Notes under the pieces: model-generated
Told to the model about the DNA's origin: nothing
The model's input: the letters and a program-made list of their open reading frames with translations, nothing else
Databases searched by the model: none
From: a virus
Strand: one strand, 5' to 3'
DNA length: 20,622 nucleotides
IMG/VR virus record: IMGVR_UViG_3300036835_000057
Span: 1-20,622 of that record
Shown: in pieces, positions 1 through 20,622 of the stretch
Layout of the letters: the number at the start of each line of letters is the position of its first letter
Position numbering within the stretch: position 1 is the stretch's first letter
Program-made: the position numbers and the translations under genes

Positions 1-32
1 TGGACGCTGCCAGACTGACCACAGCGCGCGGT

Positions 33-79
33 CAACTTTCCAACTTTCAGATGTTCTGTGCTCGAAAGTTGAAAAGTTG
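33..79. repeat. 16-bp inverted repeat in the leader of the left operon
   Basis: Arms at 33-48 and 64-79 match at 15 of 16 positions and are separated by a 15-nt spacer. The left arm is itself a tandem repeat of the octamer CAACTTTC. The element is clearly richer in A+T than its surroundings and ends about 40 nt before the first gene. I infer an operator or promoter element for the operon starting at 118. A hairpin that terminates upstream transcription is the alternative, but no T-tract follows. No further copy was noticed in the window. Confidence 0.6.
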
Positions 80-104
80 GCCACACAGCGTTCACCAAAC
101 CGGG

Positions 105-113
105 AAGGTGCGA
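105..113 (+). promoter_or_regulatory. AAGGTGCGA start-associated motif / RBS
   Basis: The 9-mer lies 4 nt before the ATG at 118. Its AGGTG core can pair with the anti-Shine-Dalgarno stretch CACCT of 16S rRNA. The same 9-mer precedes several other genes that begin after a gap, and it supports the start chosen for this gene. Confidence 0.6.
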
Positions 114-117
114 ACCA

Positions 118-312
118 ATGAATGAAGCAGCACTACGTGCGATCACGCAAGCACTCTGGTCACCAACACATGAAGACAGCAACATGGAAATGGCAAACAT
201 CACTGACGCCATCTTCGCTGTTGCGCATGCACTGGACCACGTTGCTGAGGCCATCACCAACGCAGATGACTTCACGCTGCACCAAGGTGGAACGTGGTTG
301 GTGGACAGATGA
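118..312 (+). CDS. small hypothetical protein, first gene of left operon
   Basis: This is a 64-residue acidic, probably helical protein with many Ala, His and Asp residues. No domain is recognised. The start is the ATG 4 nt after the AAGGTGCGA leader; a second frame starting at 122 has no comparable leader and is rejected. The stop codon overlaps the next gene as ATGA, so the two are probably translationally coupled. It is the first gene after the palindromic leader and may therefore be the first product of this transcript. No signal peptide or membrane segment is evident. Its function is unknown. Confidence 0.65.
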   Translation: MNEAALRAITQALWSPTHEDSNMEMANITDAIFAVAHALDHVAEAITNADDFTLHQGGTWLVDR

Positions 313-656
313 CCACTGAACCACTGAACCCTGCGCTGATTGAACGTGTCTACAAGACGCTGTTGAAGCAGCAGGACATACCCATGATCCAAGACAAAGC
401 AGCTGAACTGTGCAGTGCAGTGTGTGCGTTTCGTAGCGTCAGCCGCTTGATGAAGTACACACAAGCCATCAATGAAGATCACAGCTATCCGTGCAAGTGG
501 GTTGCGCTCCGACCCAAGCGTCTGTACCACCAGCTGACTGCTGATCCAGTGCTCATAGACGACTACTGCGAATACTGCCGCGAACACAACCACACGCGGT
601 CATGCACGATCGCAGGTCTGCGTTACGCAGCAGAACACAACCCACTGGTGGACTGA
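309..656 (+). CDS. hypothetical protein with Cys/His-rich motif
   Basis: This gene encodes 115 residues. I chose the ATG at 309, which forms an ATGA overlap with the previous stop, over the ATG at 294, because ATGA coupling is the common junction in this cluster. The C-terminal third contains a compact Cys/His cluster, CEYCREHNHTRSC, that could bind zinc. The N-terminal half is predicted helical from its Leu/Ala/Lys content. I do not recognise the family. It precedes a VRR-NUC nuclease with a TGATG overlap, so it may belong to the same DNA-handling group, but that is context only. Confidence 0.65.
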   Translation: MTTEPLNPALIERVYKTLLKQQDIPMIQDKAAELCSAVCAFRSVSRLMKYTQAINEDHSYPCKWVALRPKRLYHQLTADPVLIDDYCEYCREHNHTRSCTIAGLRYAAEHNPLVD

Positions 657-1036
657 TGGACATTGAACCATTGCAGTTCGGTCAGCTGTCACCAGAACAG
701 AAAGCCATGCTGCACAACCAGCGAGGCCAAGCATGGCAGTACGAAAGTGAACGTGAGTGGCACACGTACGTGGTGGAACTGGCGCACGTCTGTGGATGGC
801 GCACGTACCACACGCATGACAGCAGACGTTCCAACCCAGGATGGCCAGACCTAGCGATATGGAAACCACCACAGTTCATGCTGGTGGAACTGAAGACCAA
901 CAAAGGCAAGCTGTCACGCACACAGCAGATGGTGCTGGCAGAACTGCACGCATGCCATGTGGAAGTGCACGTGTGGCGACCGGTAGACGAACACAACGTG
1001 CGTGCACGTCTGAAGGATGTGAAGCACCGTGGATGA
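656..1036 (+). CDS. VRR-NUC domain nuclease
   Basis: The 126-residue product looks like a stand-alone VRR-NUC (PD-(D/E)XK superfamily) domain. Glu33 lies in an E-x-x-W context. GWPD at 62-65 supplies the catalytic Asp, the strand ending VELK at 77-80 supplies the E-x-K pair, and S-x-x-Q follows at 87-90. These match the motif order of phage VRR-NUC proteins, which are structure-selective nucleases related to Holliday-junction resolvases. The ATG at 656 overlaps the upstream stop as TGATG; the in-frame ATG at 602 would overlap the previous gene by about 55 nt and is less likely. A role in resolving branched DNA before packaging is plausible from its place upstream of the terminase. Confidence 0.85.
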   Translation: MDIEPLQFGQLSPEQKAMLHNQRGQAWQYESEREWHTYVVELAHVCGWRTYHTHDSRRSNPGWPDLAIWKPPQFMLVELKTNKGKLSRTQQMVLAELHACHVEVHVWRPVDEHNVRARLKDVKHRG

Positions 1037-1475
1037 ACAGCAACTGGTATTGGACTGGCGCATGGTGCGTGGTGCCACGTTCAGCAACGCAGTGGTGGAA
1101 CGCTGCTGTTGCATCACACCCAAGCAGCTGTACCGGGAACGTAAGCAGCTGCACTATCGCAACCGTGGTTGGTTCACGTACGGGGAAGCAGTCACGTTGG
1201 TGATGGTGAACGCTGCATGCATTCCACTGCACAGCGAAAAGCGTATGGCGTTACGTGCACTCGCACGATTGCTAGACGCCACACGCACTGAGTACGCATA
1301 CGTTGGGATAGCACAGCGTGAAGGTCAGTGGTTCCCGTACGCAACACCAGAGATGCAGTCACTGGACGGTGACGTGGTGCTAGTAGCGCACCTACCCACC
1401 GTGAGTGAAAGCCTGGCCAGCGTGCACGCACTCACGTACAACAGTGGTGGTGTCACGCAAGCAAGCGCGTCCTGA
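1029..1475 (+). CDS. hypothetical protein upstream of HNH/terminase
   Basis: A 148-residue protein starting at GTG 1029 and overlapping the nuclease gene by 8 nt. The N-terminal part, residues about 18-55, carries a Cys triplet and a basic stretch (KQLYRERKQLHYR) that could be helix-turn-helix or DNA-binding. The middle is helical (residues about 60-85) and the C-terminal part looks like mixed alpha/beta. I do not recognise a family. Since no small terminase is identifiable elsewhere, this basic protein is one of the few candidates for that role, but the sequence itself gives no proof. It overlaps the start of the HNH gene. Confidence 0.65.
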   Translation: MDEQQLVLDWRMVRGATFSNAVVERCCCITPKQLYRERKQLHYRNRGWFTYGEAVTLVMVNAACIPLHSEKRMALRALARLLDATRTEYAYVGIAQREGQWFPYATPEMQSLDGDVVLVAHLPTVSESLASVHALTYNSGGVTQASAS

Positions 1476-1779
1476 TCTTCAAACAACTGAATGGCGCAAG
1501 CTAAGTGCACGTGCACGCGCCATGGTTGGCCACTGCGAACAGTGTGGCAGCACTGACTCACTCGCACTTGACCACGTAGCTGACCGATCACTGGTCCATG
1601 GTGTGCAAGTGCTGTGTCGCGATTGCAACAACGCGAAACGTACGCACTACGGACGGAAAGCTGATCCACGTAACGCTGCTGGTTCTTGGTCGCGGCATGC
1701 GACGATGACCACAGCCGTCCGCCAATCTCTGTCCGCTCGCAGCTGGCCAGCGCAGTCTGACCCTAGGCGCGCCAGATGA
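1450..1779 (+). CDS. HNH endonuclease
   Basis: From the GTG at 1450 the product has 109 residues. It shows the standard HNH order: C29-x2-C32, then ALDHV with catalytic Asp41-His42, then LCRDCNN with C56-x2-C59 and Asn60/61. The two Cys pairs should bind structural zinc and the HNH residues a catalytic metal. HNH proteins encoded next to the large terminase are known partners in cos-type DNA packaging (HK97 gp74 is the model), which suits this position 4 nt inside the terminase start. The start is uncertain because GTG codons at 1444, 1447 and 1450 are all in frame; an ATG at 1405 overlaps the previous gene more deeply. The C-terminal 35 residues are Arg/Ser-rich and probably disordered. Confidence 0.85.
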   Translation: MSRKQARPDLQTTEWRKLSARARAMVGHCEQCGSTDSLALDHVADRSLVHGVQVLCRDCNNAKRTHYGRKADPRNAAGSWSRHATMTTAVRQSLSARSWPAQSDPRRAR

Positions 1780-3248
1780 CTGCTGTGTTGGACGCGTTGG
1801 TTCCTACGGTCGGCAGCACAGCGCCACGTGTGTTCACACCACCGTTGTTTGAACAGTCGCTTGGCAGTGATGCTGTGACGTTCAGCGAGGAAGTGTGTGG
1901 CATCGAACTGATGCCATGGCAGTGTTGGCTGTTTGATGCTGCGTTGGAACTGCGTGCACCGTGGACTGATGTAACAGCGCCACCACCGTTCAGGTATCGG
2001 ACGGTTGTGGTGCTGGTTGCACGTCAGAACGGTAAGACGTGTGTGCTTCAGCTGCGCGCGCTGGCAGGGATGTTCTTGTGGCGTGAACGTCTTGCTGTGT
2101 CCATGGCGCAGACGCGCAGTATCGCGTTTGAACCGTGGCGTGAAGGTGCGTTGTTGGTGCGTGATGTGCAAGCACTCGCGAATGAAGTGCGCAGCGTCCG
2201 CACTTCCAATGGCAGTGAGGCCATCGAACTGCGTAATGGTGCACGGTGGGTGGTGGTCGCTGCGAATGATGGTGGCCGCGGACTGAGCAGTGATCTTGTG
2301 CTGATGGATGAAGTGCGCCAGCAGCACACTGGTCATGCATGGTCTGCTGTCGAAAAGTCTCGTAGCGCGAAACCACATGGCCAGCTGTGGGCGTTCAGCA
2401 ACGCTGGCGATGACAACAGCGTGGTGCTGAACAATCTGGTTGCGCGTGGTCGCGAAGTTGCAGCTGATCCTGAGCGCGACCCAACGCTTGGGTTCTTTGA
2501 GTGGTCTGCACATGATGACTGCGACCCATCAGACGTGCGTGAGTGGCAGCTTGCGAACCCTGCACTTGGTTACACCATTCCGGTCAGCACTGTGCGCGCC
2601 GAACTGGCGCAGGACGCGCCTACAGACTTCCTGACTGAACGTCTGTGTGTACGTGTGAAGCACCTTGGTAGCTGGTTGCCACCAGGCTTGTGGGACAGCT
2701 TGCACAGTGAACGTGCACGGATAGACAGCAGTGCTGTGACGTTTGCAGTGGACGCTGCACCAGACCTGATGCATGCAGTGATCGTGGCAGCGTCACAGCT
2801 GCGCGATGGCAGCACTGCCATCACTGTCTACGCAGAACTGGACGCGCTACCGGGAAGGCCAGTCGCAGCGATGGTGGCAGACACGGTGCAGTCAGTGCTG
2901 CACGCCTACCCACACGCACAAGTGCTGTATGACGCGCGCGGACCGATCGCAGCAACCATGGGTGACCTTGCAGCTGCTGGCCTCGCATGCGCAGCGATGG
3001 ACGCAACAGACGTACAGCGCGCGTGTGAACGGTTCTATGAACTGTGCGTCAGCAGGAACGTGGTGCACGATGGCAACCAACTGCTTGCAGACCACGTGAG
3101 CAACGCTGCGCCGAACACATACCAAGACGCATGGAAGTTCGCACGTCGGCATGCAGCAGGACCAGTCAACGCATTGATTGCAGCAGTGCTCGCAGTCGCC
3201 AGTGCTCGAGCACCCAGACCTGCAACACCAGCTTGGACTGCGTACTGA
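1776..3248 (+). CDS. terL: terminase large subunit
   Basis: The 490-residue protein has both halves of a phage packaging motor. In the ATPase domain the Walker A-like ARQNGKT lies at 82-88, Walker B LVLMDE at 174-179, and the coupling motif WAFSNAG at about 205-211. In the RNase H-like nuclease domain VDAAPD (Asp326) and YDARGP (Asp386) give two acidic metal ligands. The last conserved position, in GPVNALIAA near 463-470, has Asn where an Asp is often found, so the third ligand may be Asp451 or elsewhere. The length suits the Terminase_1/HK97 type. The enzyme translocates DNA into the prohead and cuts it. It overlaps the HNH gene by 4 nt and the next microprotein by 1 nt. Confidence 0.95.
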   Translation: MTAVLDALVPTVGSTAPRVFTPPLFEQSLGSDAVTFSEEVCGIELMPWQCWLFDAALELRAPWTDVTAPPPFRYRTVVVLVARQNGKTCVLQLRALAGMFLWRERLAVSMAQTRSIAFEPWREGALLVRDVQALANEVRSVRTSNGSEAIELRNGARWVVVAANDGGRGLSSDLVLMDEVRQQHTGHAWSAVEKSRSAKPHGQLWAFSNAGDDNSVVLNNLVARGREVAADPERDPTLGFFEWSAHDDCDPSDVREWQLANPALGYTIPVSTVRAELAQDAPTDFLTERLCVRVKHLGSWLPPGLWDSLHSERARIDSSAVTFAVDAAPDLMHAVIVAASQLRDGSTAITVYAELDALPGRPVAAMVADTVQSVLHAYPHAQVLYDARGPIAATMGDLAAAGLACAAMDATDVQRACERFYELCVSRNVVHDGNQLLADHVSNAAPNTYQDAWKFARRHAAGPVNALIAAVLAVASARAPRPATPAWTAY

Positions 3249-3334: not shown

Positions 3335-3516
3335 ACAGTCACGTACGGCTGTTCCTGTGGTTGCTCGCATGCGTAGCAGTCGCAGGACTCACAGCCGGTT
3401 GCGTACTCGCCATCAGTGGTTACTCATCAGCTGGACCATTTGCTGTGGCCTCGGCATGCGTTGGTGTTCTCGGAACACTCGCAGCTGAGAACATCAGAAA
3501 GGACCATGACCAATGA
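3331..3516 (+). CDS. 61-residue two-helix membrane protein
   Basis: The ATG at 3331 overlaps the previous stop by ATGA. The product has a short N-terminus with Arg6, a first hydrophobic helix (residues about 7-30), a Gly/Ser turn, a second hydrophobic segment (about 37-53) and a charged tail, NIRKDHDQ. Two closely spaced helices and small size are typical of holins, but the position between terminase and portal is unusual for lysis. The first helix ends in TAGC (Cys24), weakly similar to a lipobox, so a small lipoprotein is an alternative. The end of this gene carries GAAAGGACC, the ribosome-binding site of the portal gene, which overlaps it by ATGA. Confidence 0.6.
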   Translation: MNSHVRLFLWLLACVAVAGLTAGCVLAISGYSSAGPFAVASACVGVLGTLAAENIRKDHDQ

Positions 3517-4754
3517 GACTGCGACGCGCACAGAGGCCACCCACTGAAGACACGGTTGTAAGCAGTGGTGCATGGCCACACGCACAGTTCGGTGGCCTAG
3601 ATGCGTTCCAACAGTGGTGGGCATCACAGCTGAACAACATCTGGACTGGTCTTCCTTGGGCTGATGAGGAAGCAGCACTAGGTGTGCCAGCAGTCAGCGC
3701 GTCACTGCAACTGCTCGCTGCGTACGTAACGCAGATGCCACTGGAAGCAGTGAACGACAGCACCACACCACCAACCACGATCACGCCAGCGCCAACAATC
3801 ATCCGTGCACCACTCGGTGACGCGCGCGCAACCAACTTCACCACGCAAGACTGGATTGAACCGTTGCTGCGTGACCTTGCACTGTGGGGGAACTATCTGG
3901 CTGTACTCGGGAACGTGGACTGGACTGGATGGCCTACGCAGCTGTTCCCGGTAGCAGTAGGTCTGTGGTCAGTGGAAGTGCGCAATGGTTTCCGCGTGTA
4001 CCACGTAGGTGACTTGGAATATGACGCGAGTGAAGTGCTGCATGTGAAGATCAATGCGCGTGATGGCGAACTGGTAGGCCGCGGACTGATGAACACAAAC
4101 CGCGACACACTCGCAGCAGCCATCGCAGCAGAACGTTGGGCAGCTACCTACTTCAGCACTGGCGCAGGTCCGTCCGTGCATATCGCACATCCCAACCCTG
4201 ACCTGACACAAGACCAGGCCAGTGACCTGAAGCAGAAGTTTCTTGACTCGCAAGCAGGATCACGCCAACCAGTCGTGACACCAGTTGGAACTGAAATCAC
4301 GGTGCTTCCGAATGATGCAGAGAGTGCGCAGCTGGTGGAAGCGCGCAAGTGGGCGAACCAAGCACTGGCGATGGCGCTTGGTGTGCAGCCCGCGATGCTT
4401 GGCCTTGAAGGTCCGTCCATGACGTATCGCAACATCACGGAAGTCAACCAACAGACAATCAACACCACCGTGATGCGTTACCTAGTTCCAGTTGAGCAAG
4501 CACTCAGTGCGCAGTGTCTGCCACGTGGCACACGTGCACGGTTCGCAACCAGCGCGCTGGTGAGGCCAGACCTTGGTGAACGCATCACGCAAGCGACAGC
4601 TGCACTGCAAGCAGGAATCATTGATGTGCAGGAAGCGCGCGCGTGGCTTGACCTGCAACCGAACGAAAGCGTGCAACAACCAGTGGAAGTGCCAGCACTC
4701 GCTGCGCCACCAGCGCAAGACGTTCCTGCGCTGCAAGTAGTTGGGGGACAGTGA
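3513..4754 (+). CDS. portal protein (HK97 family)
   Basis: The 413-residue product sits between terminase and prohead protease, the usual place of the portal. Sequence features fit the HK97-type phage portal family: an N-terminal segment with ASLQLLAAYVTQMP, a clip/stem region with LLRDLALWGNYLAVL, a YDASEVLHVK strand near the middle, then RGLMNTNRDTLAAAIAAERW and the C-terminal MTYRNITEVNQQT helix. The last 30 residues are Pro/Ala-rich and probably disordered. Twelve copies would form the ring through which DNA passes and to which the terminase docks. The ribosome-binding site GAAAGGACC lies 7 nt before the ATG, inside the upstream gene. Confidence 0.93.
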   Translation: MRLRRAQRPPTEDTVVSSGAWPHAQFGGLDAFQQWWASQLNNIWTGLPWADEEAALGVPAVSASLQLLAAYVTQMPLEAVNDSTTPPTTITPAPTIIRAPLGDARATNFTTQDWIEPLLRDLALWGNYLAVLGNVDWTGWPTQLFPVAVGLWSVEVRNGFRVYHVGDLEYDASEVLHVKINARDGELVGRGLMNTNRDTLAAAIAAERWAATYFSTGAGPSVHIAHPNPDLTQDQASDLKQKFLDSQAGSRQPVVTPVGTEITVLPNDAESAQLVEARKWANQALAMALGVQPAMLGLEGPSMTYRNITEVNQQTINTTVMRYLVPVEQALSAQCLPRGTRARFATSALVRPDLGERITQATAALQAGIIDVQEARAWLDLQPNESVQQPVEVPALAAPPAQDVPALQVVGGQ

Positions 4755-5323
4755 TGTACACACGCAGCTTTGAAGGTGACCTGACAGTGCGTGGTGATGG
4801 TCGCACTGTGTATGGGTTCGCAGTTCCGTACAACGTGGATGCCATCATCAATGATGGCTTTGGTGACTACGTAGAACGCTTCCAACGTGGCGCATTCAAG
4901 AACGTTGTGCGCGCGCCGCAGTATGTGAAGTTCCAGTACCAGCATGACGATGACCTGTTGGCTTGGGTCGGGAACGCAGTGCTGCTGCGCGAGGAAGACC
5001 GCGGGCTGTTCGGTGAGTGGCGACTAGACAACAGTGAACGTGGCAGGCAAGTGGCCTACAAGATTCACGATGGTCAGTTGCCTGGCCTCAGCATCAGCTT
5101 TGTACCGGCGCGCGATGACCGCGACATAGCAAGCAACGGTATGCAGCGCGTGACGCGCCGACTGGTGAAGAACTTGGATCACGTTGCAGCAGTACGGTCG
5201 CCAGCGTACGCATCACCAGAACCACTGATGGTGCGTGAACAGACCACGGTGGTCCAATCGTCCGTGGAACGCTGGCGCGCATGGCGCGCGTCTGTCACCA
5301 TCGCCACTGAGCAGCCCACATAG
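4754..5323 (+). CDS. prohead maturation protease (HK97 / peptidase family S78)
   Basis: The 189-residue product matches the short prohead proteases that cut the scaffold domain from the capsid protein. It begins with the typical FEGDLTVRGDGRTVYGFAVP region. A likely catalytic His64 lies in VKFQYQHDDD and the nucleophilic Ser113 in LPGLSISF. Residues RRLVKNLDHVAAVRSPAY near 135-152 form the conserved C-terminal strand region. I chose the ATG at 4754, which overlaps the portal stop by one base; the GTG directly before it (4751) would add one residue. It would act inside the prohead on the capsid protein encoded 87 nt downstream. Confidence 0.9.
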   Translation: MYTRSFEGDLTVRGDGRTVYGFAVPYNVDAIINDGFGDYVERFQRGAFKNVVRAPQYVKFQYQHDDDLLAWVGNAVLLREEDRGLFGEWRLDNSERGRQVAYKIHDGQLPGLSISFVPARDDRDIASNGMQRVTRRLVKNLDHVAAVRSPAYASPEPLMVREQTTVVQSSVERWRAWRASVTIATEQPT

Positions 5324-8512: not shown

Positions 8513-8971
8513 ATGGCCAAGTCAGCGCGCACTACGCAGTCAGTGCAAGTGGATGGACTGAAGGAAACGCTGCGCGCATTCAACAGACTTGGGAAGGATG
8601 CGAGCAGAGAACTGCGTAAGGCCTCGGTCGATATCGCACAGCACACAGCAAGCGATGCGATGGGTGCAGCGTCTGCACTTGGTGGTGTCTACGCAGCTGC
8701 TGGTTCCAGCATCAAAGCGCGCAGCGACCGGTCACCCAAGGTCATTGCTGGCACAGCCAAGAAAGTCACCAAGCGCAAGACCAGCGCCGGTTCCATCATC
8801 TTCGGTGCAGAGTTCGGTGGGCGCGGACGCGCAACCACGCAACAGTTCGCACAGCACAGAGGCCAACAGGGTTTCTTCCTGTGGCCAACCATCAGACACA
8901 ACAAAGCGCGAGACATTGCGCGCTACCAACGTGCGATGGATGACCTAGTGCGGAAGTGGTCACGTGGCTGA
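8513..8971 (+). CDS. HK97 gp10-like tail/neck protein
   Basis: The 152-residue product starts at ATG 8513. It has the HK97 gp10-like organisation: an N-terminal segment with VDGLKETLRAFNRLGKDASRELRKA followed by Ala-rich helix, a basic middle (AKKVTKRKTSAG) and a strand IIFGAEFGG leading to FFLWPTIRHNKARDIARYQ and a final helix. Proteins of this family are tail-completion or head-tail joining components. In many phages the gene lies in the neck cluster before the tube gene; here it lies between the chaperones and the tape measure. It overlaps the tape measure start by 8 nt. The family call is from pattern, not a search. Confidence 0.7.
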   Translation: MAKSARTTQSVQVDGLKETLRAFNRLGKDASRELRKASVDIAQHTASDAMGAASALGGVYAAAGSSIKARSDRSPKVIAGTAKKVTKRKTSAGSIIFGAEFGGRGRATTQQFAQHRGQQGFFLWPTIRHNKARDIARYQRAMDDLVRKWSRG

Positions 8972-10688
8972 TGCCACACGCACGCTTGGTGTCAAGTGGA
9001 CTGGTGACACCAGTTCGCTAGAGAAATCCACTGCGCAAGCAAGCAAGAAAGTTGGTGCGTTCAGTGGGTCGCTGTCCAAGATCGGAACCACAGCAGCTGG
9101 TGTGTTCACTGGCCAAGGCATGCTGGACGCTGGCAAGCAAGTGGTGTCGTTCCTTGAAGACAGCGTGCAGAAAGCACAGGAAGACCAGCAGTCGCAGACT
9201 GCACTTGCTCGCACGCTGAAGAACACCACTGGCGCGCGCAAGGATGACATTGCGCAAGTGGAAAAGTGGATCAGCAAGCAGTCCAAGGCGACTGGCGTTG
9301 TTGACGATGAACTGAGGCCAGCACTCGGAACCCTGGTGCGCGCAACCGGTAACGCACGTTCTGGTTTCAAAGAACTGCAACTAGCACAAGACGTAGCAGC
9401 TGGCAGTGGCAAAGACCTGCAATCAGTCGCTGGTGCAATCGCGAAAGCACAAGGTGGAAACTACGGTGCACTGAAACGTCTGGTCCCAACGCTTGACTTG
9501 ACCAAGGCCAAGACGCAAGGCATGACCTACGTGCAGGCCAAGCTGAATGAAACGTTTGGTGGTCAAGCAGCAGCAGCTGCGAACACCAGCGCAGGGAAGA
9601 TGAAGCGACTGCAAGTGCAGTGGCAAGAAATGCAGGAACAGATTGGTTACAAGGTGCTACCGGTACTGACCGCGGTAGCAGACTTCCTGCTGAACAAACT
9701 TCCCGTCGCCATCCAAGCCACCATTGATTGGTTCAAACGCATTTACCCTGGCGTAGTTGGTGCACTGCAACCAGTCATCAGTTTCTTTGCCAGCTACGTG
9801 CGCGCCATCGTCCTATACGTGCAAGGCATCATCCAAGTGTTCCAAGGCCTCATCCAGTTCATTCGAGCAGTGTTCTCTGGTGATTGGGGAAAGGCTTGGG
9901 ATGGCCTGGTGAAGATGTTTGGTGGTTTCGTCAAGATATTTGCAGGCATGTGGGATGCGCTGTGGGCATACGTCAAGCTGGTGTTCACACTCGCATGGCG
10001 CGCCATCATCACGCTGTTCCAGTATTACATCAAGCTGTGGGTGCTACTCATTCGCACGTACTTCAACATCGTCATCAGCCTGGCACAAGGCCTGGTGTCA
10101 TTCCTTGGACGCGTGCTCAGTACTGCGTGGAATGGCCTCATCAATGGACTGCGCATCGCATGGTCTGCTGTGGTGTCGTTCTTCAAAGGTCTACCGGCGC
10201 AAGCGTCTGCGTTCATCGGGAACGCACTCAGCTTTGGTGGCAGTATCGGCAGCAGCATTGTGAATGGCATCACTGGTGCGTTCACCAACCTAGGCAGCGC
10301 GCTTGGTTCCATCATCCGTGGCGCGATCAACTACGTCATAGATGCGTACAACGCACTTGACCTAGGTATCCACTTCACCATTCCCGGTTGGGTTCCTGGT
10401 GTTGGTGGCAAGACGTTTGGCATAGATGACATCTTCCCTGACATCAGACGCTTGGCCACTGGTGGTGTCACCACACAAGCTGGCCTTGCCTACTTGCACG
10501 CCAATGAAGCAGTCATCCCACTGTCACGCGCGCCGATGACGATGGCAGGCAACACCTACAACATCAATGTGAACGTGCCAGCAGTCGCGAACCCTGCTGC
10601 TGTCGGCGCAGCCATCGTCACAGCAGTGCGCGAGTACGAAAAGCGTAACGGTGCAAGCTGGCGCACTAGCAGCACACGGAATGCGTGA
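8964..10688 (+). CDS. tail tape measure protein
   Basis: From GTG 8964 the product has 574 residues. The N-terminal 250 residues are Ala/Lys/Gln-rich helix (STAQASKKVGAFSGSLSK, DSVQKAQEDQQSQTA) with the short GDTSSLEKS opening common in tape measures. Residues about 220-470 contain several long hydrophobic helices rich in Trp, Phe and Ile, followed by Gly/Ser-rich segments. The C-terminal region holds LATGGVTTQAGLAYLHANEAVIPL, a motif recurrent in actinophage tape measures. At roughly 1.5 angstrom per residue the tail would be near 85 nm long. The hydrophobic segment may insert in the host membrane during DNA entry. It overlaps the next gene by one base when ATG 10688 is used. Confidence 0.93.
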   Translation: MADATRTLGVKWTGDTSSLEKSTAQASKKVGAFSGSLSKIGTTAAGVFTGQGMLDAGKQVVSFLEDSVQKAQEDQQSQTALARTLKNTTGARKDDIAQVEKWISKQSKATGVVDDELRPALGTLVRATGNARSGFKELQLAQDVAAGSGKDLQSVAGAIAKAQGGNYGALKRLVPTLDLTKAKTQGMTYVQAKLNETFGGQAAAAANTSAGKMKRLQVQWQEMQEQIGYKVLPVLTAVADFLLNKLPVAIQATIDWFKRIYPGVVGALQPVISFFASYVRAIVLYVQGIIQVFQGLIQFIRAVFSGDWGKAWDGLVKMFGGFVKIFAGMWDALWAYVKLVFTLAWRAIITLFQYYIKLWVLLIRTYFNIVISLAQGLVSFLGRVLSTAWNGLINGLRIAWSAVVSFFKGLPAQASAFIGNALSFGGSIGSSIVNGITGAFTNLGSALGSIIRGAINYVIDAYNALDLGIHFTIPGWVPGVGGKTFGIDDIFPDIRRLATGGVTTQAGLAYLHANEAVIPLSRAPMTMAGNTYNINVNVPAVANPAAVGAAIVTAVREYEKRNGASWRTSSTRNA

Positions 10689-12561: not shown

Positions 12562-12792
12562 GTGGAAGACAAGCGTGAAGAACAGCAGAACCAGCAGCCT
12601 GACGATGAGCAGCAGGAACGTCTGCACGTTCCCGAACCGGGAACAGATGGACCAGACGTAACCGACATCACTCCTGGCATCCCTCCTGGCGTTGTGGTGG
12701 ATGCAGAGGAAGGCGACGCCGAACAGTCAGACGTAAGTGATGCACCAGACAGCACAGACACTGGTGATGACAGTGGCGCTGGTACCGACTGA
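12562..12792 (+). CDS. acidic low-complexity protein
   Basis: GTG at 12562, preceded by AGAAAGGAACC, starts a 76-residue protein that is extremely rich in Asp, Glu, Gln, Pro and Gly and has no predicted fold. The centre has a Pro/Gly segment, PGIPPGVVV. It contains only a few basic residues, mostly near the N-terminus. It overlaps the endolysin gene by about 26 nt. It could be a virion decoration or a disordered linker subunit; no function can be assigned. Two of the five CTCC tetramers of the whole window (12671 and 12683) lie here. Confidence 0.6.
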   Translation: MEDKREEQQNQQPDDEQQERLHVPEPGTDGPDVTDITPGIPPGVVVDAEEGDAEQSDVSDAPDSTDTGDDSGAGTD

Positions 12793-13723
12793 CTACCCAC
12801 AACGTTTGGCCAAGCGTGGCCTGAACGTGCAAGTGATGGGTGACTGGCAATCATGTGGTGGTAGCGCGGATCACGCTGCATTGGTGTTGCATCACACTGC
12901 GAGCAGTAGCAGCACCAAACCAGCAGACGATGCTGCGTACTGCCACCACGGTTCTGGTGATGCACCGTTGTACAACGTGATGGTGGATCGCACTGGCGTT
13001 GTGTGGGTGCTCACGCGCAGGAAGTCAAACAACGCAGGGAAGATCAGTGGCACTGCACTGAATGAAGCACTGCGAGGCCAAGCGCAACTGACACCAGCTG
13101 CACAGCGAGGCCTTGCAGACACCACCAGTGCGAACAGTCAACTGTTCGGCATCAGCGCGCAGAACAACGGAACTGGCGAGTGGTGGTCCGACGCACTGGT
13201 GGATGCCATGTGCGTTGTTGCAGACGAAACGCTGAAGTGTCTTGGCCTCAGCGTTGGTCATGTGTCCACGCATCGCACGCTGACTGCTCGCAAGATTGAC
13301 ACCACTGATGGCCAGTATGGCGTTCCTGCCGACTGGCACAGCGCGATCCAGAACGCTGGTGGTTACGCACCAGCACCACCACAACCAGAGGAAGACGAAA
13401 TGTGGACCATCGTGGGTGAAGTACCAGCAGGAACATCACGCGAGCAACCCGGTTCACTCACACTCGCACTGCCAGCTGGTCGCAAGTCAGCCAAGTTGCA
13501 GATGTACGCAGCATGCCCACCAAGCCAAGGTGTATCGCTGTGGGCAGCGCAGTGTCTGAACGGTAAGAACTTTGGCATGTGGTCGAAAGGCAACACTTGG
13601 GAACAGTGGCTGAATGGCAGCAAGCAGTTCACTGTTGACCTGATGCCAGAGGCCTACGCAGTGCAGTTCCAGCACATGGGTGGAACGAAAGCACCACTAG
13701 TGGTCAGCATCAGTGGTACGTGA
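12767..13723 (+). CDS. endolysin, N-acetylmuramoyl-L-alanine amidase (Amidase_2/PGRP-like)
   Basis: From ATG 12767 the protein has 318 residues; GTG 12764 and GTG 12773 are alternative starts. Residues 20-200 form an Amidase_2-type zinc amidase: LVLHHTAS with His42/43, LYNVMVDRTGVVW with a Tyr as in T7 lysozyme, and HVSTHRTLTARKID with His169 and Asp178 as further probable zinc ligands. A Pro-rich linker (about 201-210) leads to a 107-residue C-terminal domain, beta-rich with several Trp, which probably binds the cell wall. No signal peptide is visible, so release would need a holin. The linker also contains a good internal ribosome-binding site and ATG (see 13387-13402). Confidence 0.88.
   Translation: MTVALVPTDYPQRLAKRGLNVQVMGDWQSCGGSADHAALVLHHTASSSSTKPADDAAYCHHGSGDAPLYNVMVDRTGVVWVLTRRKSNNAGKISGTALNEALRGQAQLTPAAQRGLADTTSANSQLFGISAQNNGTGEWWSDALVDAMCVVADETLKCLGLSVGHVSTHRTLTARKIDTTDGQYGVPADWHSAIQNAGGYAPAPPQPEEDEMWTIVGEVPAGTSREQPGSLTLALPAGRKSAKLQMYAACPPSQGVSLWAAQCLNGKNFGMWSKGNTWEQWLNGSKQFTVDLMPEAYAVQFQHMGGTKAPLVVSISGT
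13387..13402 (+). promoter_or_regulatory. candidate internal translation start within endolysin gene
   Basis: AGAGGA at 13387-13392 stands 7 nt before an in-frame ATG (13400-13402) at the exact boundary between linker and C-terminal domain. Initiation here would yield a free domain of 107 residues (MWTIVGEV...). Several clostridial, enterococcal and other phage endolysins are known to use internal starts to make separate wall-binding subunits. For this gene it is an inference. Confidence 0.45.
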
Positions 13724-13982
13724 TGATGGTGTCCTAGCTGCGCTGGTCATCCTCACTGCGCTGGTTGGCGCAGTCGTCTGGTCAGTGTGGCGTCACCACG
13801 TGATGGAAGACCTGCACGCCATACGCAAGATGTTGGAACAGCGCCACGTGTGGGAGCAGCGCATAGCTGCTGACCTTGACGTACTCGCGAGCAGTCACAC
13901 TGATGAAGTGACAGATGACCAGACGCGAACGTCAAGTGAAGCTTTCACCAGTGACACCACGCATAGTGATGACGTAGGGTGA
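13713..13982 (+). CDS. putative holin / membrane-anchored coiled-coil protein
   Basis: GTG 13713 overlaps the endolysin by 11 nt. The 89-residue product has one hydrophobic helix at about residues 7-26 (GVLAALVILTALVGAVVW), then a charged helix with heptad character (HHVMEDLHAIRKMLEQRHVWEQRIAADLDVL) and a Ser/Thr/Asp-rich tail. Location next to the amidase and a single membrane span are consistent with a holin or with another lysis accessory of Gram-positive phages. The two small membrane proteins in the head cluster and this one are the only membrane candidates. It is the last gene before the hairpin at 13988. Confidence 0.6.
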   Translation: MVRDDGVLAALVILTALVGAVVWSVWRHHVMEDLHAIRKMLEQRHVWEQRIAADLDVLASSHTDEVTDDQTRTSSEAFTSDTTHSDDVG

Positions 13983-13987
13983 ACGTA

Positions 13988-14073
13988 CGTAAGGCCACTG
14001 GCACTTGTGCACGCTTGCAGCGTTGGTTCTTCGCACCTTCCAACGCGTCAGCTGTGTCGCCAGTGGCCTTACG
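13988..14073. terminator. large nested hairpin between convergent operons
   Basis: A perfect 15-bp inverted repeat (13988-14002 with 14059-14073) encloses a second perfect 7-bp stem (14020-14026 with 14040-14046) and a 13-nt apical loop. It begins 6 nt after the stop of the rightward lysis operon and about 105 nt before the end of the leftward operon, so a bidirectional transcription terminator is the simplest reading. No U-run follows either arm, as is frequent in actinobacteria. The apical loop contains the complement of the AAGGTGCGA motif. A structured RNA or recombination site cannot be excluded. Confidence 0.65.
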
Positions 14074-14178
14074 CATCCATGGCCACGTGGCGAGTGCTCA
14101 GCCCTAGTCACCAGCTGTGTGACCTGTGTTCCCGCGCGCTGACGCTAGGCCTTCCACTTCAGCTGTGCAACAGGATGT

Positions 14179-15521: not shown

Positions 15522-15567
15522 TGTAGATGACCGCGCGCGCGTGCGCGTGGCGTCACAGGACCAACCA

Positions 15568-15576
15568 AAGGTGCGA
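15568..15576 (+). promoter_or_regulatory. AAGGTGCGA start-associated motif / RBS of the integrase
   Basis: The 9-mer lies 6 nt before GTG 15583, which is in frame with the catalytic domain and shortly before the YARRS motif. It argues against an upstream start at the in-frame GTG 15541, which lies in an alternating G/C/T run. Confidence 0.6.
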
Positions 15577-15582
15577 ACCCAA

Positions 15583-17145
15583 GTGCAGACCACACAGCAA
15601 GCGCGTGCGAGCAAAGCAGCCATCTACGCAAGACGTTCCAAGGATTTGGAACTGGCAGGCAAGAACGTTGCCAGTCAAGTGCGCGATATGACAGCACTAG
15701 CTGCAAGCAAAGGTGATGACAACATCACTGAAGACCGTATCCACGTGGACAATGACGTGAGTGCTTCCCGGTTCGCACGTAAGCAGCGAACAGCGTGGAA
15801 GGAACTAGTGGCGCAGATCGAAGCAGGCAGCGTCCGGCGCATCTACACACTGTGGTTGAACAGACTGCTGCGACTGCCAATGGAACTGGAACACCTAATC
15901 AATCTTGCGCTGGCAGGCAAGTTTGAAAGCATCATCACTGAAAGCATCACGCTAGACCTGCGCACTCCTGAAGGTCAGATGATGGCGCGCCAGATGGCAG
16001 GCCACGCAGATATGGAAGTGCAGCAGCTGTCTCATCGCATCAAGCGCAAGATGGATGAGAACCGGCGCGAGGGTAAGGCCACGCATGGTGTGGTCAGCTT
16101 TGGATGGCTTGGCACTCGCCATGGCCACAAGGATGACGCTGGCCTGATCCACCATGAAGTTGAAGCAGCACTCATCCGTGAAGCAGCACAGCAAGTGCTT
16201 GCTGGTCGCACGCTGTCAGCCATCGCACGTGAGTGGACAGCAGCTGGCGTGGACCAACCAATGCAGCTGCACAAGTGGGTGAAGGCAGGCAGCAATGGCG
16301 AAAGGCCAACACCCAACTGGATGCCCAACCACATCCAACGTGTGCTGACACTGCCACGTAACGCTGGATACCAGACACATGAAGGTGCAGTGGTTGGTCA
16401 ACCGTGGTCACCCATCTTGGATGCAGACACGTACGCACAGCTGGTGGCGCACTTTGAGCGCAGGAAGTATGGCGCACGTTCTGCGCGCAGTAGCGAGTGG
16501 ACAGGCTTTGTGCGCTGTGGTGGAACCAAGGACGATGGCAGCGTCTGTGGTGCAACCATGCTGTACACACCAGCGAAGAACAACCGTCCAAGTGCTTTCA
16601 AGTGCGCAGCGATAGTTGGGCGCGATGCATGTGGCCACAATGGTGTGAGTGGCCACCACGTAGAACGTCTGGCGCACGACTGGTTGGTGCAGCTGCTGGA
16701 CGATGAGACGATGCGTACGCTGTCCACGGACGATGAAGCAGACACAGCACAGCTGTTCGCACGCTTGCAGCAACTGAACCAGCTGCAAGTTGAACTGGAT
16801 GAAGACCGCGGTAGTGGTGCGATGCCACGTGAGGCCTACAACCGTGCGAGCAAAGCCAACCAGCGTGAAGTGGAAGCAGTGTCACGTGAACTGGCGTCCA
16901 CGTCAGTGCGGAACGCCATGACACCGTACTTGGGTCGCGGTCAGTTCATCCGTGGTGTTCTCGACAGTGGCGATATGACAGCAGACGAACACCGCGCGCT
17001 GTTCCTGGCCACAGGTCAGTTCGCATGGATCAGGCCACAAGGGTTTCGACACAAGCACTTCGATGTCACGCGCGTGGCGTTCAGTGAGGAAGCACCACCG
17101 GAATGGACCACCAAGGTCAGTGACAGCAAGCAGGATGCTGCGTAA
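15583..17145 (+). CDS. int: large serine integrase (site-specific recombinase)
   Basis: From GTG 15583 the enzyme has 520 residues. The N-terminal catalytic domain starts with AAIYARRSKD (nucleophile Ser19, with Arg17/18), followed by VDNDVSASRFARKQRTAW and the VRRIYTLWLNRLLRLPMEL region. A recombinase domain follows, with GKATHGVVSFGWLG and NHIQRVLTLPRNAGY. A zinc ribbon has Cys in RCGG, VCGA, KCAA and ACGH. A coiled coil around LFARLQQLNQLQVELDE should mediate synapsis. Large serine integrases recombine attP with attB without host factors, and need a directionality factor for excision. The typical loop motif DRLxR is replaced by NRLLR. The gene is divergent from the putative regulator and has a hairpin 41 nt after its stop. 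Confidence 0.94.
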   Translation: MQTTQQARASKAAIYARRSKDLELAGKNVASQVRDMTALAASKGDDNITEDRIHVDNDVSASRFARKQRTAWKELVAQIEAGSVRRIYTLWLNRLLRLPMELEHLINLALAGKFESIITESITLDLRTPEGQMMARQMAGHADMEVQQLSHRIKRKMDENRREGKATHGVVSFGWLGTRHGHKDDAGLIHHEVEAALIREAAQQVLAGRTLSAIAREWTAAGVDQPMQLHKWVKAGSNGERPTPNWMPNHIQRVLTLPRNAGYQTHEGAVVGQPWSPILDADTYAQLVAHFERRKYGARSARSSEWTGFVRCGGTKDDGSVCGATMLYTPAKNNRPSAFKCAAIVGRDACGHNGVSGHHVERLAHDWLVQLLDDETMRTLSTDDEADTAQLFARLQQLNQLQVELDEDRGSGAMPREAYNRASKANQREVEAVSRELASTSVRNAMTPYLGRGQFIRGVLDSGDMTADEHRALFLATGQFAWIRPQGFRHKHFDVTRVAFSEEAPPEWTTKVSDSKQDAA

Positions 17146-17225: not shown

Positions 17226-17368
17226 GCGCGTCCGTACCCTTGATGTAACTAACCCTGTGGGTGCACACTCGCAGACGTTCATGGTGCGAAGAACCCAAGC
17301 CAGCGAGGAAGTGCACGCACGCTGCGCTGCTGTGCTCCGCGCGTTTCTTGCTCGCATGGCAGGCAAGG

Positions 17369-17377: not shown

Positions 17378-17380
17378 ACA

Positions 17381-18030: not shown

Positions 18031-18197
18031 CGCAGGAAGAACGTCTGGCGCAGCTGGAACGCACACTGCTTGCGTTGCTGGTCATGCTGCTGGACGTAGC
18101 TGATGGTCACTATCCACTGCGCAACTGTGGTAGCGCGCTGGATGCGTTGGTGCGCTTGCACAAAGAACAGATGCCTGACTGGCAGGAAGACCGGTGA
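18027..18197 (+). CDS. 56-residue hypothetical early protein
   Basis: The reading frame starts at GTG 18027 and overlaps the genes on both sides by GTGA, giving unbroken coupling from 17791 to 19039. The product begins with TQEERLAQLERTLLALLVMLLDVADG, an amphipathic leucine-rich helix probably forming a coiled coil, followed by GSALDALVRLHKEQMPDW. No family is recognised. The frame is fully open and fits exactly between the neighbours, and codon use is like theirs. Confidence 0.6.
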   Translation: MTQEERLAQLERTLLALLVMLLDVADGHYPLRNCGSALDALVRLHKEQMPDWQEDR

Positions 18198-19039
18198 CCA
18201 GTGTTGTCTGGCCTCGCGCGCAGACAGTTGACCGCGCGCTGTTGCCAGCTGATGCAATCGAATGTTGGTCAGTCACTGAAATACTGAAGCTGCTGGAAAA
18301 GCCTGGCCTGACGTACTGGTTTCAGCAGCAGGTTGCTCGCACTGCATGGAACCGGCGCACTGCACTTGATGCGCTGACTGAACGTGAAGCTACGCAGCTG
18401 CTGCTGAAGCGAGACAACTGGACGCAGGACCACGAACTGTCTGACGCGCAGTGTGGTTCTGCTGTGCATGCTGCACTGGAAGCACACACGTTGGGTGACG
18501 TGCCAGACGTGCATCCTGAAGCGCAGCCTTTCGTCAAGCAGTTCTACGCATGGCTTGATGCTGTGCAGCCTGAGTACCAAGCAGCTGAAGCAACTGTGTT
18601 CCATCCTGAACTGCTGTACGCAGGAACACTGGATGCGCTCGCACGTATTGATGGCCAGCTGTGGCTGATCGACTACAAGACCACACGCAACCCACTGGAC
18701 GCGCGCGGGAAGCTGCGCGGACCCTACAGCGAATGGTTGCTGCAACTTGCTGCGTATCGCTTCGCACCGTACGTGTGTGCGTTCCGGCCCTACGTCTTAG
18801 AGACTGACTACAGCCCGCGCCGCTACTACATCAGTCCGCAAGATATGGACCACGCAGTAGCCATGCCCAAGGTGGACGGTTGCATGGTGTTGCAGCTGGA
18901 ACCCAACGCATGGCGCATGTATCCAGCGCGTGTGGGCAACGCTGCGCATGATGCGTTCCTGCAACTGCGTTCACTGCAGCGTTACCTAGACCTGACTGCG
19001 CGTGGCGCGTGGTCAAGCTACGTGGAAGGCAAAGCATGA
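18194..19039 (+). CDS. Cas4/RecB-type PD-(D/E)XK nuclease
   Basis: From GTG 18194 the protein has 281 residues with the motif order of the RecB/Cas4 exonuclease group: GSAVH (His92), a Glu in AEATVF (132), GTLDAL (Asp147), LIDYKTT (Asp160, Lys162) and QLAAYR (Gln184, Tyr188). These residues form the metal-binding active site. No helicase domain and no C-terminal cysteine cluster for an iron-sulfur centre is seen, so it is a stand-alone nuclease. In phages such enzymes process DNA ends for recombination or replication. It lies two genes upstream of the Gp3-like protein and overlaps the next gene as ATGA. Confidence 0.85.
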   Translation: MTSVVWPRAQTVDRALLPADAIECWSVTEILKLLEKPGLTYWFQQQVARTAWNRRTALDALTEREATQLLLKRDNWTQDHELSDAQCGSAVHAALEAHTLGDVPDVHPEAQPFVKQFYAWLDAVQPEYQAAEATVFHPELLYAGTLDALARIDGQLWLIDYKTTRNPLDARGKLRGPYSEWLLQLAAYRFAPYVCAFRPYVLETDYSPRRYYISPQDMDHAVAMPKVDGCMVLQLEPNAWRMYPARVGNAAHDAFLQLRSLQRYLDLTARGAWSSYVEGKA

Positions 19040-19326
19040 ACCGTGGAAGGCCTCGCACTCATCACACACACAGGATGCGCGCTGGTGACTTGCGCGCGTC
19101 CATGGACGCACTGGAACACCTAGCTGGTGTTGCCAGTGATGAAGCAATCATTGAAGTGGAACGCACTGACTATGAAGACACTGCTGGTTCCTTCAGTCCT
19201 GAAGCACTGAATGAAGCGCGCGACTGCATGGAAGCTTGGGTTATCAGTCGCATACTGCGCCAGTGGAACCAGAGTGGCACTGCACCTAAGCGCATGACCA
19301 TCAGGGTGCGCGTGGTGGTGGCCTGA
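19036..19326 (+). CDS. hypothetical early protein
   Basis: 96 residues starting at ATG 19036 with an ATGA overlap. The basic N-terminus (NRGRPRTHHTHRMRAGDLR) suggests nucleic acid contact. The middle is acidic and helical (SDEAIIEVERTDYEDT, PEALNEARDCMEAWVISRIL) and the end is a basic strand (MTIRVRVVV). It might be a small single-stranded or structural DNA-binding protein. No family is recognised. It lies between the nuclease and the Gp3-like gene, with a TGATG overlap to the latter. Confidence 0.6.
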   Translation: MNRGRPRTHHTHRMRAGDLRASMDALEHLAGVASDEAIIEVERTDYEDTAGSFSPEALNEARDCMEAWVISRILRQWNQSGTAPKRMTIRVRVVVA

Positions 19327-20513
19327 TGTCGCCGATGTTGGATGTACAACGCAGGGTGCATGAAGTTGGACGCATCAGGCTTGGTGTGCAAGGTGCGGAC
19401 CATCCACGTGCACTGTCCACGTTTCGTTTCACGTCTGCGCGCGCTGACCTGATCGCACAGCTTGCTGCGCAACTTGGTGGCGAACCAACGCAGTGGCAAG
19501 GCCAACATGAACTGGTGTCTGATGCGAGCGCACTTGATGTGCTGATACCACCAGCTGATGTTGGGTTCAGTCAGTGGCATGAACTGTGGTCAGCAGCAGG
19601 TTGCCAACGTAGGTGCGACGGATACCGGGAAGTGCTGACTGACCAACCATGTGTGTGCACTGAGGAAGGCCAGCGCAAGTGTGATGACGTAACCCGGTTG
19701 TCTGTGCTGCTTCCTTCACTGCGCACGTTTGGACTGTGGCGCGTCGAAACGCACAGCTGGTATGCAGCAGCCGAACTGCGCAGCGCGATCGAACTTGCGC
19801 TTGGCCTCGCTGCACGTACTGGTGAACATCTTGCACAAGGTGTGCTGCGCATCGAACAGCGCGCGGTGAAGCGACCAGGCCAGTCTGTGCAGCGTTTCAC
19901 GGTGCCAGTGCTGGATGTCGCACTGTCGGCGCAAGCGTTGCCTGAATCGGCGGCAGCGAGGCCTACAGCGTCTGTGAGCGCACGTGACGCGCTCGCTCTG
20001 GTCGCACCAAGCGATGGCGAGGAAGCAGAGTCCACACGTGCACGTGATCGCGGCGCGCCAACTACGCCAGTCACGTCACTGCCACCAGATGAAGACGATG
20101 GTGCGCCACCCACACTGACTGCACATGAACGTGAAGCGCGAGACACAGCGCGTGCGACCCATCCAGCTGCTGATCCTGAGCGCGCACGTTCACTGCGCGC
20201 CATGTTCGCAACCGTCGCCGCGATCCTTCCCGATGCCGACAAGGACGCGCGCAACAGCTTGCGTTACGCACTCGCAGTCATGGTCACCACCAAGACGCGC
20301 GCCGAACAGAACCAACCACCAGCGACCAGTTGGAATGACCTGACCGGTAGGGAACTGGTGAAGGTGGAACAGCTGTTGCGCGATGTGCAGAACGGTGGCA
20401 TGGTCGCGGAGCCACGTGGCGATGGTGGTTGGCACTTCGCACTGCGCAGTGGTCGCAGCTGCGACATCTACCAGGACACCAACGGTGCGTGGACGTACAA
20501 CGTTGCCATTTGA
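19326..20513 (+). CDS. phiC31 Gp3-like protein, candidate recombination directionality factor
   Basis: The first ~200 of 395 residues carry the hallmark order of phiC31 Gp3-like proteins: STFRFTSARADLIAQLAAQLGG, DVLIPPADVGFSQWHELWSAAGCQRRCDG (93-99), a second Cys set (C109, C111, C119), TRLSVLLP (123-130), FGLWRVETHSWYAAAEL, and QRFTVPVLDV. The Cys residues probably bind zinc. In phiC31, Gp3 binds the serine integrase and switches it to excision. Here the protein extends about 150 residues further, through an acidic Pro/Ser/Asp linker, to a C-terminal domain (PERARSLRAMFATV, SWNDLTGRELVKVEQLLRDV, GGWHF). The family also occurs in phages without serine integrases, so a DNA-replication or recombination role cannot be excluded. 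Confidence 0.8.
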   Translation: MSPMLDVQRRVHEVGRIRLGVQGADHPRALSTFRFTSARADLIAQLAAQLGGEPTQWQGQHELVSDASALDVLIPPADVGFSQWHELWSAAGCQRRCDGYREVLTDQPCVCTEEGQRKCDDVTRLSVLLPSLRTFGLWRVETHSWYAAAELRSAIELALGLAARTGEHLAQGVLRIEQRAVKRPGQSVQRFTVPVLDVALSAQALPESAAARPTASVSARDALALVAPSDGEEAESTRARDRGAPTTPVTSLPPDEDDGAPPTLTAHEREARDTARATHPAADPERARSLRAMFATVAAILPDADKDARNSLRYALAVMVTTKTRAEQNQPPATSWNDLTGRELVKVEQLLRDVQNGGMVAEPRGDGGWHFALRSGRSCDIYQDTNGAWTYNVAI

Positions 20514-20533
20514 CATACGAGCAGAAAGCCAAT

Positions 20534-20541
20534 AGGTGCGA
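20534..20541 (+). promoter_or_regulatory. AGGTGCGA start-associated motif / RBS
   Basis: An 8-nt version of the repeated leader (TAGGTGCGA with T instead of A at the first position) lies 2 nt before ATG 20544. The preceding 20 nt are the gap after the Gp3-like gene. Confidence 0.45.
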
Positions 20542-20543
20542 CT

Positions 20544-20622
20544 ATGGCGACACGCGAACCCTTGCAGTACCACGCTGTAGACCAACTGCCTGAAGTGACA
20601 CGCAGTGGTGGTGGTGGTGGGA
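20544..20622 (+). CDS. partial early gene, cut by the window end
   Basis: The ATG at 20544 follows the AGGTGCGA leader. Twenty-six codons are visible before the window ends; the last residues are Arg-Ser followed by a run of Gly from repeated GGT/GGG codons. The start (MATREPLQYHAVDQLPEV) has a form seen in small actinophage proteins of unknown function, but too little is present for a call. The Gly run may be a flexible linker. Confidence 0.55.
   Translation, partial: MATREPLQYHAVDQLPEVTRSGGGGG

What the first reader, a model, noticed from the sequence alone, without database searches (positions are those of the whole stretch)
1..20622. Near-absence of the tetramer GGAG/CTCC across the whole window
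Reading every line on both sides, I find GGAG only at 13853 and 20408, and CTCC only at 507, 12671, 12683, 15965 and 17335. Chance at uniform composition would be about 80 of each in 20.6 kb. GGA and GAG occur freely separately, and GAGG is common, so the constraint is on GGAG itself. Since most genes are rightward, selection at mRNA level would hit GGAG only; equal loss of CTCC points to a DNA-level pressure. A non-palindromic host restriction, BREX-like or DNA-modification target that the phage has purged is the most attractive explanation. Runs of GGGG and CCCC also looked scarce.
Basis: partly seen in the sequence, partly recalled or inferred. Interest (0 to 1): 0.85.

Follow-up and report, generated by a model that had tools for sequence, protein, structure and literature searches.

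The report
Phage genome with many purged words
This small bacterial virus really has almost no GGAG/CTCC, but that is only the most visible of about thirty short DNA words missing from both strands of a genome whose letter order is far more constrained than in any of the roughly 190 comparison sequences, for a reason still unknown, so it is not the footprint of one host defence enzyme.

Summary
The count is right: GGAG 2, CTCC 5, at the stated positions. Expected is 26/24 (order-2 Markov) or 59/39 when synonymous codons are shuffled. The interpretation, one purged asymmetric defence target, does not hold. GGAG is one of 30 minimal words purged to 20% or less of expectation; control pieces have a median of 2 and a maximum of 16. 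The whole genome follows a strand-symmetric, phase-independent rule about six bases long. Cross-validated order-5 entropy falls 0.22 bit/base, against at most 0.13 in 137 controls and 0.045 for the same proteins with codons shuffled. A model trained only on the opposite strand still gains 0.14-0.15. GAGGC is followed by C 38 of 38 times. A/T runs, homopolymers and local GC variance are also suppressed, evenly along the genome and in intergenic DNA. None of 30 genes has GGAG near its start (17/39 and 17/40 in two comparator phages). The window is a divergent temperate actinophage-like siphovirus without a recognised methyltransferase. No close relative or host was found. The nearest trends lie in small-genome Acidimicrobiia; one (G1643) has GAGGCC:CCGGAG 195:17. 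Best reading: an extreme DNA-level word regime, probably inherited from an unsampled host lineage. Multi-target restriction, a phage-specific DNA constraint, or recoded DNA are not excluded.

The parts
1..20622 (.). Whole window: strand-symmetric word-usage regime of about 6 bases; GGAG/CTCC nearly absent
   Evidence: Gain over base composition 0.199-0.246 bit/base in every 2-kb stretch; CV order-5 1.759 vs order-0 1.984
13853..13856 (+). One of two GGAG sites (codons GTG TGG GAG CAG)
20408..20411 (+). Second GGAG site (GCG GAG)
507..510 (+). CTCC site
12671..12674 (+). CTCC site, in the short imperfect repeat CATCACTCCTGG
12683..12686 (+). CTCC site, second copy of the same repeat
15965..15968 (+). 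CTCC site inside the integrase gene
17335..17338 (+). CTCC site
653..1036 (+). VRR-NUC nuclease (start approximate)
   Evidence: PF08774 6e-11
1776..3248 (+). Terminase large subunit
   Evidence: PF20441; 32-40% identity to actinobacterial phages and prophages
3513..4754 (+). Portal protein
   Evidence: PF04860 1e-47
4751..5323 (+). Prohead protease
   Evidence: PF04586
5369..6646 (+). Major capsid protein (HK97-type)
   Evidence: PF05065 at threshold; 33% identity to a viral contig
8964..10688 (+). Tail tape-measure protein
   Evidence: PHROG 991 and others
12737..13723 (+). Amidase_2 endolysin
   Evidence: PF01510 8e-11
13983..14178 (.). Intergenic DNA under the same word regime (gain 0.256 bit/base)
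15541..17145 (+). Large serine integrase (indicates a temperate phage)
   Evidence: PF00239 + PF07508
18194..19039 (+). PD-(D/E)XK nuclease
   Evidence: PF12705
19326..20513 (+). Gp3-like recombination directionality factor
   Evidence: PF18897 2e-35

Best explanation
The near-absence of GGAG/CTCC is one symptom of a genome-wide, strand-symmetric word regime acting on the DNA itself, about six bases in reach. Shown: it sits in the order of synonymous codons (protein content and codon frequencies alone do not produce it), in all phases, on both strands and between genes, evenly across all modules. It suppresses A/T runs, homopolymers, purine tracts and dozens of short words and over-uses others (CAGCTG, GAGGCC, ACCA). 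Inferred: the phage took on this regime from long residence in one unsampled actinobacterial host lineage with the same extreme word usage, produced by that lineage's mutation, repair and DNA-level selection. A streamlined Acidimicrobiia-like host is the best current guess. As a consequence, translation starts lack GGAG-type Shine-Dalgarno cores and use AAGG/GGAA/AGGA-type ones or none.
For: Order-5 gain 0.22 bit/base in the window; next highest of 137 pieces 0.13. Codon-shuffled version of the same genes: 0.045, and 0.005 with an opposite-strand model, against 0.224 and 0.142 real. Uniform along all modules and in intergenic DNA. 30 purged words vs median 2, maximum 16 in 146 controls. 0/30 starts with GGAG within 25 nt vs 17/39 and 17/40. 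Phages generally take on host word usage (PMC5831537). Among controls the nearest values for CA/TG excess (L119 1.39, L204 1.36; window 1.66), few homopolymers (L120), low zero-order GGAG (L193) and low GC variance (L118) come from genomes in the class of G020, an Acidimicrobiia by the title of L090. G1643 of the same order has GAGGCC:CCGGAG 195:17; no other genome counted exceeds about 3.6, the window is 38:0.
Against: No host with the full regime was found. None of 162 pieces of 8 kb or more, used as a model, predicts the window clearly better than base composition (later batches likewise). In the Acidimicrobiia pieces profiled, GGAG is mostly about as frequent as its trinucleotides predict (range 0.69-1.43), so the specific tetramer loss is not reproduced. 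CAGCTG reaches 1.03/kb at most in counted genomes vs 3.4/kb here. Phages usually have weaker word bias than chromosomes (PMC3305612), so the host would have to be even more extreme. G1643 could not be profiled.
Confidence: 0.45

Rival explanations
1. The phage has purged recognition words of a host, or rotating set of hosts, carrying many DNA-targeting defence systems at once; GGAG is one of many targets and the over-used words are simply the permitted synonyms.
For: Some purged words are classic palindromic restriction sites: CTGCAG 1/21, TGATCA 0/8.6, AGCGCT 0/9.7, GGCGCC 0/5.9, GATC 56/99. No phage methyltransferase or anti-restriction gene was recognised.
Against: 25 of 30 purged words are asymmetric, a class phages rarely purge (PMC6286503). 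Four related words GAGGCA/G/T and GAAGCC all vanish while GAGGCC abounds. Restriction does not explain loss of A/T runs, homopolymers and GC variance. The phage is temperate. Palindromes are only mildly low overall: 438 vs 519.
Confidence: 0.2
2. A phage-specific DNA-level constraint, for example escape from an AT-tract-binding silencer such as Lsr2 or a packaging/replication requirement for locally balanced, run-free DNA, shapes this genome independently of host signature.
For: Five-base A/T stretches 7 vs about 290 expected (0.024); homopolymers of 4 or more 18 vs medians about ten times higher; GC variance half of binomial. Promoter-like sites 0 vs 5.8 in shuffles. Lsr2-type silencing of AT-rich DNA is known in actinobacteria (PMC12239563).
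Against: Silencer escape does not predict loss of GGAG, CTGCAG, CCCAG or AGCTC, nor hexamer-level choices such as GAGGC always followed by C. Very low A/T runs alone also occur in some high-GC controls.
Confidence: 0.18
3. One asymmetric restriction, BREX-like or modification target containing GGAG has been purged.
For: GGAG/CTCC is among the most depleted tetramers on both strands. A Bacillus cereus BREX site, TAGGAG, contains GGAG (PMC6326788).
Against: Many words equally purged. Known targets of this kind are 5-6 bases, and GGAG is lost in every context. No known 4-base asymmetric target was identified. Temperate lifestyle.
Confidence: 0.04
4. The record is recoded or otherwise artificial DNA (codon-designed) rather than a natural genome.
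For: Even local GC, few homopolymers, and synonymous order far from any natural comparison; no close relative in the IMG/VR, INPHARED or GTDB searches made.
Against: Intergenic DNA shares the regime; natural 4-base gene overlaps (ATGA/GTGA) at many junctions; repeats as numerous as an order-5 model predicts, so no repeat purging; divergent natural phage proteins.
Confidence: 0.07

Closest known systems
Restriction-site avoidance in phages (Rusinov et al. 2018, PMC6286503)
   Same: Short words strongly under-represented in a phage genome, including some Type II palindromes
   Different: About 30 words, mostly asymmetric, in a temperate phage, combined with over-used words and base-balance effects
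Genome-signature amelioration of phages to hosts (reviewed in PMC5831537)
   Same: Genome-wide, strand-symmetric, uniform word bias affecting all modules
   Different: Magnitude (0.22 bit/base, six-base reach) exceeds every control; no host with matching signature found
BREX (TAGGAG site of Bacillus cereus, PMC6326788)
   Same: Asymmetric target containing GGAG
   Different: Six-base target; here GGAG is lost in nearly all contexts and many unrelated words are lost too
Lsr2/H-NS xenogeneic silencing of AT-rich DNA
   Same: A genome nearly free of A/T runs would give such a silencer few sites
   Different: Does not predict G/C-rich and mixed forbidden words

Membership tests
Restriction-site avoidance (orthodox Type II) | Purged words are mainly palindromic | tested here: not met
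   5 of 30 purged words are palindromes
Restriction-site avoidance (orthodox Type II) | At least some individual Type II palindromes purged beyond sub-word expectation | tested here: met
   CTGCAG, AGCGCT, TGATCA, GGCGCC
Restriction-site avoidance (orthodox Type II) | Host carries the cognate system | not testable with these tools
   Host unknown
Single asymmetric target purge (Type III/BREX-like) | One word stands out; others near expectation | tested here: not met
   7 tetramers, 4 pentamers and 2 hexamers with z below -4; control medians 1, 0, 0
Single asymmetric target purge (Type III/BREX-like) | Depletion acts on DNA, not on one coding strand | tested here: met
   GGAG and CTCC both low; opposite-strand model predicts the window
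Host-signature amelioration | Uniform, strand-symmetric bias over all modules and non-coding DNA | tested here: met
Host-signature amelioration | Host chromosome shows the same signature | tested here: inconclusive
   No match in genomes counted or pieces profiled; only directional similarity in Acidimicrobiia, with G1643 the best lead
Evasion of AT-tract silencers | A/T runs purged genome-wide | tested here: met
   WWWWW 0.024 of expected
Evasion of AT-tract silencers | Non-AT words unaffected | tested here: not met
   GGAG, CCCC, GCCC, CCGC, CTGCAG strongly depleted

The most novel reading that the evidence does not exclude
A previously undescribed DNA-level selective pressure forces this phage to write its whole genome in a locally balanced, run-free, hexamer-restricted alphabet on both strands (GGAG, A/T runs and dozens of words forbidden), independent of any single restriction target and not simply inherited from host composition.
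Probability: 0.17. Interest if true: 0.88.

Novelty: new variant of a known kind. Interest (0 to 1): 0.62.

Why it matters
Phage word bias is used to predict hosts and infer defence targets. This genome shows that a striking missing word can be one facet of a much larger regime, so inferring one enzyme from one missing word would mislead. The regime itself (0.22 bit/base, strand-symmetric, no GGAG at translation starts) lies outside every comparison made here. Finding the host would show directly whether such extreme DNA grammars arise by mutation and amelioration or by DNA-targeting selection.

Tried and rejected
Codon bias or protein content: rejected by synonymous shuffles. mRNA-level Shine-Dalgarno avoidance: rejected because CTCC and opposite-strand words are equally lost. 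Repeats or low-complexity DNA: none that matter. Systematic sequencing error: long conserved reading frames make it unlikely (inference). Close relatives: IMG/VR scans with single proteins found only distant hits (capsid 33%, directionality factor 31-32%; the portal scan matched only unrelated stretches) and none for terminase, integrase or amidase. A terminase alignment returned 80 loci from genomes (101 had passed confirmation) and 80 from IMG/VR, none with the signature. Host hunt by word counts: Actinomycetota 396 genomes, Chloroflexota 301, Bacillota 199, Acidimicrobiia class 198 and its sub-groups, Coriobacteriia 298. CAGCTG-rich Coriobacteriia looked promising but their profiles did not match. 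Rfam and tRNA scans were empty.
Full report
What was claimed.

Observation. The counts and positions are exact. The expected number depends on the null: 124 and 87 from base composition, 26 and 24 from an order-2 Markov model, 59 and 39.5 when synonymous codons are shuffled with proteins and codon usage fixed. Every null is far from 2 and 5. In 190 control pieces of at least 12 kb the lowest ratio of observed to order-2 expected GGAG is 0.56; the window has 0.15. The statement that GAG occurs freely needs correction: GAG is at 0.27 and CTC at 0.35 of zero-order expectation, and GAGG/CCTC at 0.27-0.30.

What the window is. It is a viral record of 20,622 bases encoding a VRR nuclease, HNH-like protein, terminase, portal, prohead protease, capsid, tape measure, amidase, large serine integrase, PD-(D/E)XK nuclease and Gp3-like recombination directionality factor. 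The integrase indicates a temperate phage. The terminase is 32-40% identical to those of actinobacterial phages and prophages. No recognised methyltransferase, anti-restriction or convincing defence gene was found among the proteins scanned. No close relative was found.

The missing tetramer is one of many. With sub-word frequencies taken into account, CCGC/GCGG (64 vs 147), CTCC/GGAG (7 vs 50), ACGA/TCGT, AGCC/GGCT, ACCT/AGGT, GATC and CAGG/CCTG fall below z = -4. So do CCCAG (4 vs 31), AGGCG, AGAAG (3 vs 26), AGCTC (0 vs 17), and CTGCAG (1 vs 21) and AGCACG (2 vs 22); controls have medians of 1, 0 and 0 such words for lengths 4, 5 and 6. A hierarchical count gives 30 minimal words at 20% of expectation or less, against a median of 2 and a maximum of 16 in 146 control pieces. 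25 of the 30 are not palindromes. Other words are over-used: ACCA/TGGT, CAGC, CTGC, GGCC flanked by A or T, CAGCTG (70 sites), GAGGCC.

The rule acts on DNA and reaches about six bases. GAGGC is followed by C in all 38 cases. Glu-Glu is GAGGAA 14 times and GAAGAA 3 times, and the second codon is never GAG; Glu-Ala uses GAG only before GCC; Leu-Gly almost never uses CTG before GG. Cross-validated entropy falls from 1.984 bits per base at order 0 to 1.759 at order 5, and order 5 still improves on order 4, which happens in none of the 17 controls of that run, whose gains are 0.02-0.095. In the larger set of 137 control pieces the highest gain is 0.13, in a 77% GC genome. A model trained only on the reverse complement still gains 0.15. 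When the same genes have their synonymous codons shuffled, the gains drop to 0.045, and to 0.005 with the opposite strand. So proteins and codon frequencies alone do not make the pattern; the ordering of synonymous codons is what is extraordinary. The gain is even along the genome (0.199-0.246 per 2 kb), across structural, lysis and integration genes, and is present in intergenic DNA.

Physical description. Five-base A/T stretches occur 7 times against about 290 expected; homopolymers of four or more 18 times (0.87 per kb; control median 8.8 per kb). GC variance in 5-300 base windows is 0.48-0.64 of binomial. CA/TG is 1.66 of expectation against at most 1.39 in controls. Purine and pyrimidine tracts are halved. 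Codon-shuffled genes have about 100 A/T stretches and 90 runs. Promoter-like sigma-70 sites are 0 against 5.8 in shuffles. None of 30 genes has GGAG within 25 bases upstream, against 17 of 39 and 17 of 40 in two annotated comparator phages; 12 have AAGG, GGAA, AGGA or GAGG. The regime therefore overrides the usual ribosome-binding core.

Search for a host or sister. Direct counts with built-in reversed-pattern controls were made in Actinomycetota, Chloroflexota, Bacillota, Acidimicrobiia and Coriobacteriia, about 2,000 genome scans in all. Roughly 140 pieces from these genomes and 160 terminase relatives were fetched, and those long enough were profiled. Nothing matches. Directional similarity concentrates in small genomes of the class Acidimicrobiia (identified through the title of L090 and shared class lists): lowest SSGGAGSS:SSGAGGSS ratio (G1109, 306:1662; the window is 1:16), highest CA/TG, fewest homopolymers, low GC variance, high own word bias. 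The most striking single genome is G1643, with GAGGCC:CCGGAG 195:17; no other genome counted exceeds about 3.6, and the window is 38:0.

Interpretation. Shown: a genome-wide, strand-symmetric, phase-independent word regime of about six bases, of which GGAG loss is one facet. Inferred: the regime comes from an unsampled host lineage to which the phage has been ameliorated. Phages generally drift toward host word usage (PMC5831537), every module is equally affected, and the nearest trends cluster in one class. Against this, no host was found and phages usually have weaker bias than chromosomes (PMC3305612). A multi-target restriction purge would explain some palindromes, but the published survey finds avoidance essentially limited to orthodox Type II sites and weaker in temperate phages (PMC6286503), whereas here most purged words are asymmetric and base-balance effects are large. 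Silencer escape explains A/T runs but not the rest. A recoded sequence is unlikely given intergenic coverage, natural gene overlaps and unpurged repeats, but is not excluded.

Verdict. Observation confirmed; a single defence target is not supported; the finding is larger and stranger than reported, with the cause open.

Noticed in passing
window 623-20622: No sigma-70 promoter-like site at all on either strand (0 vs 5.8 +/- 2.3 in dinucleotide shuffles), consistent with loss of A/T runs; the phage's promoters must look different.
   Followed up: partly
G1643 (order of G386, class of G020): A 1.7 Mb Acidimicrobiia-class genome with GAGGCC 195 vs CCGGAG 17 and CAGCTG 725 vs GTCGAC 141, the strongest GAGGCC skew of all genomes counted; possible host lineage.
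   Followed up: partly
L236, L239, L241, L243, L246, L253, L277: A group of IMG/VR contigs at 43-45% GC with 31% identical terminase shows mild GGAG depletion (0.35-0.7 of order-2 expectation) and CA/TG about 1.2-1.3.
   Followed up: no
L192-L195 (G1109, G1078): Small-genome Acidimicrobiia-class members have unusually strong own word bias for mid-GC genomes (0.10-0.12 bit/base) with CG at 1.44-1.50 of expectation.
   Followed up: partly
G983 (Bacillota): A 5.6 Mb genome has GAGGCC 80 vs CCGGAG 1740, an opposite extreme skew.
   Followed up: no
L005 (MZ923504.1, Microcystis phage MinS1): Listed as a Microcystis phage but 72% GC with Lsr2-family and DUF3263 genes and an actinophage-like directionality factor; the host label looks doubtful.
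   Followed up: no
Coriobacteriia genomes: CAGCTG:GTCGAC ratio varies from below 0.2 to above 20 within one class (e.g. G1484 1011:44), showing how fast hexamer usage diverges.
   Followed up: partly
window 14378-15706, minus strand: Leftward ORF with a coiled-coil C-terminal half and no family match beyond coiled coils, overlapping the start of the integrase ORF; the true start is probably near 15310.
   Followed up: no
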